A DNA stretch of 64,000 bases, taken from the NCBI RefSeq assembly GCF_004006235.1, contig NZ_CP034753.1:3410001-3474000 (forward strand), given 5' to 3'. A model generated the notes under the pieces. That model saw only the letters and a program-made list of their open reading frames with translations. It ran no database searches and was not told where the DNA came from. Positions within the stretch are counted from its first letter, which is position 1. The number at the start of each line of letters is the position of its first letter. A program made the position numbers and the translations under genes. The DNA comes from Agromyces sp. LHK192 (GTDB lineage Bacteria > Actinomycetota > Actinomycetes > Actinomycetales > Microbacteriaceae). Below, piece by piece: positions 350 through 63,227 of the stretch.

Positions 350-418
350 CACCTTTTCAGGATCAGCGCGGTCATGGCCGCGTATTGCACTCATGACCGA
401 TCTGGTCCTGAATTGGTG
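350..418. repeat. 69-bp nested palindromic element, copy A
   Basis: The 16-base outer arms at 350-365 (CACCTTTTCAGGATCA) and 403-418 (TGGTCCTGAATTGGTG) are inverted repeats with three mismatches, separated by exactly 37 bases. Inside, CGGTCATG (369-376) and CATGACCG (392-399) form a perfect inner dyad around GTATT. The same arms, spacing and total length recur at 17126-17194 and 49711-49779. The element follows a plus-strand stop codon by 14 bases and precedes ppk2. Confidence 0.9.
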
Positions 419-4442: not shown

Positions 4443-4509
4443 CGGAGGACGTCCGCGACCACGACGGTCATGCTCGGCACGCGGCATCCGCGTGGGTCTA
4501 TGCTCGGTC

Positions 4510-4613
4510 GGAGTGACACGGGGTGCCGCCCCGCTCCGCGCGATCGTCGTGCGGGGCATCCGCGGCTGAGATCACACCCGTCGAACCTGATCTAGTTCGG
4601 ACTAGCGAAGGGA
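4510..4613 (+). promoter_or_regulatory. TPP (THI-box) riboswitch controlling thiM operon
   Basis: The conserved aptamer blocks appear in order: ACACGGGGTGCC (4515-4526), a GC-rich extended P3 arm, CTGAGATCACACCC (4565-4578), GAACCTGATC (4583-4592) and GCGAAGGGA (4605-4613). The 3' strand GAAGGGA is also the Shine-Dalgarno sequence of thiM, seven bases before its ATG, so ligand-stabilised P1 would directly hide the ribosome site. This implies translational repression by thiamine pyrophosphate. Confidence 0.92.
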
Positions 4614-4620
4614 TGTCGCC

Positions 4621-5520
4621 ATGCGCGATCGCCTGTTCATCGACCCTGCCCGCCGATCGACCGAGGTGACGGAGACCGCGATCGCGGTGCTCCACCGTCT
4701 CAGATCGACGGGCCCGCTCATCCACTGCATCACCAACACGGTGGTGAAGAACTTCTCCGCGAACGCGCTGCTCGCCGTCGGCGCGTCGCCGGCGATGGTC
4801 GACATCCCCGAGGAGGCGGGCATGTTCGCGGGCATCGCCGGCGGCCTGCTCGTGAACCTCGGCACGCCGCAGGCCGAGCAGCGCGACGCCGCCCGCGAGG
4901 CCGTCGCCGCGGCCAGCGCCGCGGGCACGCCGTGGGTCCTCGACCCGGTCGCGATCGGCGTGCTGCCGGTGCGGACCGCGCTCGCGCACGAGTTGCTGGC
5001 GTCGCGGCCGACCGCGATCCGCGGCAACGCGTCGGAGATCCTCGCGCTGGCGGGTTCCGGCGGTGGCGGCCGGGGCGTCGATGCCGCCGACACGACGGAT
5101 GCCGCGGCCGACGCGGCCCGCCGGCTCGCGCTCGACTCGGGCGCCATCGTCGCGGTGTCGGGCCCGGTCGACCTCATCACCGACGGCGTGCAGACCGCGC
5201 GGGTCGCCAACGGCGACGCGCTGCTCACGCGCGTGACGGGCGGCGGATGCTCGCTCGGCGCGGTCACGGCGGCGTTCCTCGCCGCTGCGCGCGGCACGGA
5301 GGTCTCGGCGTTCGAGGCCGTCGTCGCGGCGAACCTCGTCTACACCGTCGCTGCTGAGCTCGCGGCGACGCCCGGCGCCGACGGCGCGCCGGTCGGCCCG
5401 GGCACCTTCGCCGTGGGGTTCCTCGACGCGCTCGCCGTCGTCGACTCGGCCGATCTGCACGACCGCGCGCACCTGACCCTGACCGGCGCCGCGACGCCGG
5501 CCGAGGAGGTGCTCGCGTGA
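4621..5520 (+). CDS. thiM: Hydroxyethylthiazole kinase
   Basis: ThiM phosphorylates the hydroxyethylthiazole moiety salvaged from thiamine breakdown. In the 299-residue protein, [20 protein letters not shown] near residue 35 is the substrate-binding block, GNASEI near 137 is conserved, and TGGGCSLGA near 200 carries the catalytic cysteine. The ATG at 4621 follows the riboswitch-embedded GAAGGGA. It is the first gene of a four-gene operon with four-base overlaps throughout. No thiC or thiG is present, so the operon serves salvage rather than de novo synthesis. Confidence 0.95.
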
Positions 5521-17125: not shown

Positions 17126-17194
17126 CACCTTTTCAGGACCACAGCCTCGGTGACCGCTATTTGCGGCTCTGACCGCCCTGATCCTGAAAAGGTG
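17126..17194. repeat. 69-bp nested palindromic element, copy B
   Basis: Outer arms CACCTTTTCAGGACCA (17126-17141) and TGATCCTGAAAAGGTG (17179-17194) pair with a single mismatch that is a G-U in RNA, and the spacer is exactly 37 bases. The spacer contains CTATTTGCGGCTCTGACCG, aligning with GTATT-CTCATGACCG of the other copies. It fills most of the gap between the ClpR-like gene and the convergent regulator gene. Confidence 0.9.
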
Positions 17195-49710: not shown

Positions 49711-49779
49711 CACGTTTTCAGGACCACGGCCTCGTTGGCCGTGTATCCGGCTCATGACCGCTGTGGTCCTGAAAAGGTG
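49711..49779. repeat. 69-bp nested palindromic element, copy C
   Basis: Outer arms CACGTTTTCAGGACCA (49711-49726) and TGGTCCTGAAAAGGTG (49764-49779) differ from perfect by one base; spacer exactly 37 bases, containing GTATCCGGCTCATGACCG. It begins two bases after a plus-strand stop and lies between convergent genes. Confidence 0.9.
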
Positions 49780-63040: not shown

Positions 63041-63092
63041 CCGCTCACGCTACCGGGACGCTCGGTTCGTGCCACCACCCGCCGCCTCCTGC

Positions 63093-63173
63093 GCGTGCGG
63101 GTTCGGCTCACGAGTGCGGCTTGTTCCCACACGTGCGGGATGCATGTCGCACTCGTGGACCGAACCCGCACGC
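63093..63173. repeat. 81-bp nested palindromic element
   Basis: Arms of 28 bases (63093-63120 and 63146-63173, beginning GCGTGCGGGTTCGG) pair with only three mismatches. The 25-base loop contains a second dyad centred on CACGTG (CCCACACGTGCGGG). It fills the region between two minus-strand genes and is unrelated in sequence to the 69-bp family. Confidence 0.85.
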
Positions 63174-63227
63174 GAACGACGACGCGTGGGTGAATCGGTC
63201 GGGACCGAAGCCTGCCGCGAGAAACAT

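What the first reader, a model, noticed from the sequence alone, without database searches (positions are those of the whole stretch)
350..418. Family of three fixed-length 69-bp nested palindromes placed after genes
The elements at 350-418, 17126-17194 and 49711-49779 each consist of 16-base arms close to CACCTTTTCAGGACCA and its complement, separated by exactly 37 bases. All three sit 2-20 bases after a plus-strand stop codon, two of them between convergent genes. Inner arms (CGGTCATG/CATGACCG in copy A) give a second stem and a conserved GTATT core with CTCATGACCG. Mismatches between arms tend to be compensated or G-U, which suggests RNA structure or a transposable miniature element. It does not resemble a REP, Chi or standard terminator that I know; a U-tract is missing.
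Basis: seen in the sequence. Interest (0 to 1): 0.75.

Follow-up and report, generated by a model that had tools for sequence, protein, structure and literature searches.

The report
Palindromic DNA repeats with partner nuclease
Three 69-base palindromes in this soil bacterium belong to a scattered repeat family, and in related bacteria such palindromes bracket genes for a homing-type DNA-cutting enzyme on both sides, which points to a kind of mobile repeat that does not seem to have been described.

Summary
The three window copies belong to a 9-copy family of 69 bp in this genome; among 60 genus genomes only one other carries it. Other species have dialects sharing a CAGG motif; this genome has 34 TTCAGGA...TCCTGAA pairs of several families. 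RAYT fails: no Y1 transposase in 30 of 30 genomes. Instead, such palindromes bracket genes for a two-domain protein, an AbiEi-like part plus a Vsr-like nuclease resembling homing endonuclease I-Bth0305I. Of 61 such genes, 41 share a repeat between both flanks, against 0 of 147 and 4 of 234 control genes. Arm motif follows the protein tree. A sequence-only profile of the window's family matches both palindromes flanking one such gene in Leifsonia. The window's own family has no partner gene here: an orphan set. Best reading: a REP/RAYT-like system built on an unrelated enzyme. Mobility and cleavage are inferred, not shown.

The parts
350..418 (+). Copy A of the 69-bp palindrome (family F1). Arms 350-365 and 403-418; inner arms CGGTCATG/CATGACCG; core GCGTATTGC. 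Tandem genes on both sides.
17126..17194 (-). Copy B (family F1), best oriented on the minus strand, between convergent genes (the upstream protein looks like ClpP, recognised from memory). The only one of 9 copies at an orthologous site among the sister species' copies (G044:C2:158547).
49711..49779 (+). Copy C (family F1), between convergent genes, 2 bases after a stop codon. Absent from the orthologous spacer of G001, where both flanking genes are conserved.

Best explanation
The three elements are copies of a mobile, or formerly mobile, palindromic repeat (F1) that belongs to a class of roughly 57-95 bp near-palindromes paired with an AbiEi-like/Vsr-like (DUF559, EDxHD type) nuclease. SHOWN: the nuclease gene often carries the same palindrome on both sides; close paralogues of it are absent from the same genome; palindromes of the same or a near dialect are scattered through several of these genomes; arm motif and protein tree go together; F1 matches, by sequence alone, the palindromes that flank such genes in Leifsonia and Glaciibacter. 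INFERRED: the N-terminal AbiEi-like domain reads the arm motif (here TTCAGGA), two molecules sit on the two-fold symmetric site, the Vsr-like domain nicks or cuts it, perhaps as an extruded hairpin, and repair or reinsertion copies the palindrome to new intergenic places. In this genome F1 has no partner gene and its copies have diverged (mean pairwise identity 0.69); the sister species' copies are more alike (0.86).
Against: No cleavage, binding or movement has been shown. F1 has no partner gene in either species that carries it (three genes each), and no remnant was found (tblastn E 0.01) in 24 loci around F1 copies. 20 of 61 nuclease genes lack a detectable flank pair. Flank duplications of 3-8 bp are not in excess at 25 F1 copies (0-2 of 25), and no strain-level insertion polymorphism could be examined. 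Pairwise, the F1 consensus aligns with nuclease flanks no better than with reversed flanks; only the profile does. Copy B is shared by descent. Several of the weakest passing loci (scores 40-45) look GC-rich and non-palindromic. Motif labels were set by me, four corrected by hand. In the first neighbour clustering ABC ATPases lay near elements in more genomes (9 of 23 members) than the nuclease (5 of 6).
Confidence: 0.72

Rival explanations
1. Cis-acting RNA hairpins: terminators or 3'-end protectors that lack a U-tract.
For: Strong folds, some covariation, 7 of 9 copies in this genome within 21 bp of a stop codon on either strand, 5 of 9 between convergent genes.
Against: Three of 26 copies lie between divergent genes; in G157 three copies sit between divergent genes and one inside an open reading frame. 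By the pattern used, 58 of 60 genus genomes lack the family. RNA pairing alone does not explain invariant arm sequence or both-side pairing with nuclease genes.
Confidence: 0.1
2. Binding sites of the nuclease as a regulator or as a restriction-like self mark: AbiEi-like proteins bind inverted repeats (recalled), so flanking copies could be operators and scattered ones a regulon.
For: The N-terminal part resembles an AbiEi antitoxin (Pfam AbiEi_4 in 2 of 6, below cut-off); in 34 of 41 cases the left-hand repeat ends within 130 bp of the gene match.
Against: They lie on both sides of the gene, not only at the promoter; the family is absent from most congeners; F1 persists without a partner gene.
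Confidence: 0.1
3. Ordinary MITEs of an unseen insertion sequence, the nuclease genes being passengers.
For: Palindromic inverted repeats, scattered, non-coding, patchy.
Against: Eight TTCAGGACCA sites outside the known F1 copies of the two genomes were read: three are paired elements, five are single; at four of the five the genes on either side are not transposases by Pfam, the fifth lies inside a 1033-residue frame. TTCAGGATCA single sites were not read. The motif tracks the nuclease tree.
Confidence: 0.06

Closest known systems
REP elements and RAYT/TnpAREP transposases (REPtrons, TIRtrons)
   Same: Scattered palindromes; enzyme gene flanked by them; several repeat types in one genome; co-evolution of enzyme and repeat (PMC3733652, abstract and one section read; PMC8266576, abstract read).
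   Different: The enzyme is a Vsr-like nuclease, not a HUH tyrosine enzyme; palindromes are about 57-95 bp, have no GTAG or CGTC tag that I saw, and are near-symmetric throughout.
EDxHD homing endonuclease I-Bth0305I
   Different: Here an AbiEi-like domain is in front and multicopy palindromes bracket the gene. I did not test whether any member lies in an intron.
AbiEi antitoxin of type IV toxin-antitoxin systems (6y8q)
   Different: Joined to a nuclease. A toxin partner was not looked for.
Mobile hairpin or palindromic repeats of mitochondria
   Same: Short mobile palindromes (search listing and abstract starts only).
   Different: Organellar; nothing in that listing speaks of a Vsr-type enzyme bracketed by its own palindrome.

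Membership tests
REP/RAYT REPtron | HUH Y1 transposase (PF01797) | tested here: not met
   0 of 30 genomes, 20 of them with elements or 44 or the F1 searches; the same search rings in 5 of 14 control genomes
REP/RAYT REPtron | 20-40 bp repeat with an unpaired GTAG or CGTC tag | tested here: not met
   69 bp, no such tag seen at the ends of the aligned copies
REP/RAYT REPtron | Enzyme gene flanked by the scattered repeat, without close paralogues in the genome | tested here: met
   with a different enzyme; not for F1 in its own genome
MITE | Target-site duplication | tested here: inconclusive
   No excess of 3-8 bp duplications at three offsets, 25 copies; ends uncertain and no exact empty site
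MITE | Autonomous relative with the same terminal repeats | tested here: inconclusive
   None for F1 at the sites read in G000 or G044; nuclease units for other dialects
Intrinsic terminator | U-tract after the stem | tested here: not met
   Absent by eye in the three copies; scan around C finds none
EDxHD homing endonuclease (partner protein) | Vsr-like fold with conserved acidic and His residues | tested here: met
   34 of 34 aligned sequences keep E216, D218, H223 and D231; fold. That these are the EDxHD residues is my reading of the motif name
EDxHD homing endonuclease (partner protein) | Cuts a defined site and spreads by repair | not testable with these tools
   Needs biochemistry
AbiE type IV toxin-antitoxin | Adjacent AbiEii toxin gene | not tested
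   Neighbours were not scanned for it

The most novel reading that the evidence does not exclude
A new class of bacterial mobile repeat: an AbiEi-Vsr fusion nuclease, unrelated to HUH, DDE or site-specific recombinases, drives the spread of its own palindromes of about 57-95 bp, each lineage with a co-evolved arm dialect. It is spread over several Actinomycetota families and leaves orphan repeat families, such as the one in this window, when the enzyme gene is lost, perhaps by recombination between its flanking copies, which are direct in 20, inverted in 6 and undecided in 15 of 41 cases.
Probability: 0.55. Interest if true: 0.92.

Novelty: categorically new. Interest (0 to 1): 0.85.

Why it matters
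If true, palindromic repeats have been made mobile at least twice by unrelated enzymes, and a family of 'unknown function' (DUF559 with an AbiEi-like front) gains a substrate that can be tested at once. It also gives a candidate enzyme type for palindrome families without a known transposase, such as the CGTC REPs, which a 2013 survey found without a dedicated one (PMC3733652, abstract and one section read).

Tried and rejected
RAYT/Y1 transposase: searched and absent. Rfam: only a TPP riboswitch in the window at gathering scores. F1 in viral contigs (exact pattern), plasmids and phages (blastn): no match. Genome-collection scan with the strict F1 pattern: no locus; records near the window's genome may be left out there. 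A transposase between close copy pairs in G044: none noticed reading the open reading frames, no domain search. Exact insertion junctions: the coding insertion in G157 lies in a variable linker, the G198/G367 pair gave no clean empty site, copy C's empty spacer is too diverged. One search used a wrong strand or frame and says nothing. The first tree had proteins read in a wrong frame and was replaced. Pairwise alignment of the F1 consensus with nuclease flanks: no better than reversed control. Uptake sequences: TTCAGGAYCA outside pairs is not abundant. Integron attC sites: considered from memory only, not tested. The 22 of 398 genomes include three (G109, G280, G321) whose hit is an unrelated palindrome; the hits of the other genomes were read only in part. 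The largest neighbour cluster (12 genomes, 9 of 23 members near elements; 174 of 649 proteins are near) is ABC ATPases in the four members scanned and was set aside as a common superfamily. Families absent from the VIA-align list were not taken as excluded.

Papers: nothing on topic for DUF559 with palindrom, Vsr, AbiEi or mobile/repeat/transpos, nor for the other term sets; these are listings, and the library holds open-licence PubMed Central papers only, so this is weak evidence of absence. The I-Bth0305I primary paper is not held; what is said of it comes from passages of PMC3943268 and search results. For PMC12907096 I saw one passage.

Full report
1. The observation. The arm motif is far beyond chance (7 matches against 0.07 expected) and the folds are strong (z -6.45 to -8.19). 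The genome (4.09 Mb, one contig) has nine copies, all 69 bp: seven with perfect arm cores and two with one mismatch. Four further matches with three mismatches are not elements, two of them the same sequence, which looks like 16S rRNA. A covariance model finds the same nine places and one weak extra (E 0.06). I call this family F1.

2. Where it occurs. Of 60 genomes of the genus searched with the arm pattern (up to two mismatches), the window's has 9 copies and G044 has 16; a single two-mismatch hit in G054 looks like chance. G044 has one more, shortened copy. The genus is Agromyces: the G004 protein is identical to one of Agromyces allii on a contig of the same length (the G004 contig length as printed equals that of G004:C1 in the fetch). 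Mean pairwise identity is 0.86 among the 16 G044 copies and 0.69 among the nine G000 copies; arms 0.96 and 0.92, interior 0.81 and 0.53. Length is 69 in all 25 aligned copies, but these were found with a fixed-gap pattern; the model search without that limit agrees for G000. In G044, columns 41-43, opposite a nearly constant triplet, vary freely.

3. Sites. Flanks of the nine G000 copies were compared with those of the G044 copies: only copy B (window 17126) is at an orthologous place. One other pair is curious: the G000 copy at 610691 and the G044 copy at C4:150399 lie at opposite ends of the same conserved 3-kb block. Copy C is absent from the orthologous spacer of G001, whose two flanking genes are both conserved; in G044, G054 and G008 the upstream gene is conserved and no element follows. 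For copy B, six relatives (L090-L095) align on both sides but not across the element, and the F1 model has no hit in L090-L117. Over 26 copies, 10 lie between convergent, 13 between tandem and 3 between divergent genes; none is wholly inside a predicted gene. No flank duplication of 3-8 bp is in excess.

4. A larger class. A model of the 25 copies finds matches in 22 of 398 genomes of the family, in 9 of 85 genera. Three of these (G109, G280, G321) are an unrelated palindrome. The others that I read are near-palindromes, mostly matched over 54-71 bp, with their own arm dialect, e.g. TTTTCAGGGACAG, GTTTGCAGGATGAG, AATTCAGGAGGAG. The pattern TTCAGGA-N40..68-TCCTGAA gives 34 pairs in the window's genome, 22 in G036, 20 in G044, 17 in G198, and none in G040, G054 and G421; the reversed control gives none in 15 of 16 genomes and one in G116. 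The 34 pairs of the window's genome are F1 (9), F2 (20, 69 bp between the outer TTCAGGA tips, with flanks that extend the palindrome), four of 58 bp (two of them a clear family, F3) and one of 71 bp, which lies inside a predicted gene.

6. Both-side pairing. Of 20 genomes 19 yielded 63 such genes (66 matches, three genes in two pieces). Sixty-one had enough flank. For 41 of them left and right flank share a repeat scoring 40 or more (25 score 60 or more); of 147 control genes, all from Agromyces, none does, the highest being 35. A second control, 234 genes from loci of these and other genera, gave 4: a nuclease gene I failed to exclude, a gene lying between two scattered copies, and two unexplained. 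The shared repeats are in many cases near-palindromes of 58-95 bp, in others the palindrome score is poor. Of the 41, 20 are direct, 6 inverted, 15 undecided because of the symmetry. In 75 of 76 named loci (one flank too short) 38 pass; six loci, four of the 38, repeat the first set, and some of the weakest look like GC-rich sequence. Passing loci include Dermabacteraceae, Propionibacteriaceae and Actinomycetaceae. The closest paralogues within a genome are 30-59% identical (three of these values over short stretches), and the unit is collinear over 5.5 kb between G198 and G367.

7. Partner and dialect. G198, G367, G008, G157 and G268 have scattered copies of the dialect that brackets or adjoins a nuclease gene; G421 nearly so (one base differs in the arm); of G184 I read one scattered copy. 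In G000 family F2 brackets the gene at 2950617 and F3 lies beside the one at 273269. Arm motif (CAGG in both arms or not) on the protein tree of 54 labelled proteins: 9 changes against 16.8 in shuffles, none of 1000 as low; after thinning at 60% identity (46) 7 against 12.8, again none. I set the labels; three were relabelled and one dropped by hand.

8. F1's link to this class. No nuclease gene in G000 (3) or G044 (3) is flanked by F1, and no remnant was found in 24 loci around F1 copies. A sequence-only F1 profile, without base pairs, over 79 nuclease loci (at least seven of them fetched twice) hits both flanks of the Leifsonia sp. Leaf264 gene (E 1.4e-4 and 1.5e-3; the gene lies between) and the upstream palindrome of Glaciibacter flavus (0.003); in G157 it hits a scattered copy 1 kb away (0.006) and the flanking one weakly (0.022). 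Over 402,242 bases of controls it finds the three window copies only. It also finds scattered copies in relatives (best 5.4e-8). A plain pairwise alignment does not show the link. F1 is thus best seen as an orphan set of this class.

9. Mechanism. Shown: architecture, association, motif-protein linkage, fold. Inferred: an AbiEi-like domain reads the arms, a dimer occupies the two-fold symmetric site, the Vsr-like domain cuts, and repair or reinsertion copies the repeat. I-Bth0305I is reported to dimerise on a target of nearly 60 bp (PMC3943268, passages), which fits the size and symmetry here. Covariation in F1 (33 double-change cells against 19.9, none of 500 shuffles; two of the five measures not significant) suggests that self-pairing matters too, as extruded DNA or as a repair artefact of palindromes.

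10. Not resolved: cleavage site, target-site duplication, live mobility, and why 20 of 61 nuclease genes lack a visible flank pair.

Noticed in passing
window 63092-63174: An 83-bp near-palindrome between two minus-strand genes (CGCGTGCGGGTTCGG...CCGAACCCGCACGCG), unlike F1; possibly another family. A 12-base piece of its arm occurs in 3 of 363 fetched loci.
   Followed up: partly
window 4509-4630: TPP riboswitch above its gathering score, overlapping the predicted start of a gene at 4621.
   Followed up: no
L268 (G044:C1:451550-452432), L269 (G008:C1:262111-262993), L263 (G421:C60:9959-10842): Three nuclease genes bracketed on both sides by palindromes are matched in two pieces: decayed genes, sequencing errors or frameshifting. 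Described only.
   Followed up: no
L157 2825-2903 (G157): A palindrome lies inside the open reading frame of an ABC-type ATPase gene, translated as an extra linker; the relative G077 lacks it, but the linker is too variable for an exact junction.
   Followed up: partly
L121, L156 (G157 proteins): The peptide GSLSERSES(K/R)G recurs in unrelated proteins, which looks like another in-frame repeat.
   Followed up: no
G000:C1, e.g. 2950437, 3197839, 423694: Family F2: TTCAGGA pairs of 69 bp with a nested inner TCAGGA pair; in many copies the flanks (GTGCCGGA...TCCGGCAC) extend the palindrome.
   Followed up: partly
L129 1538-1588 (G198): A nearly perfect 51-bp palindrome GCCCTTCGACAGGCTCAGGG..., unlike the elements here.
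   Followed up: no
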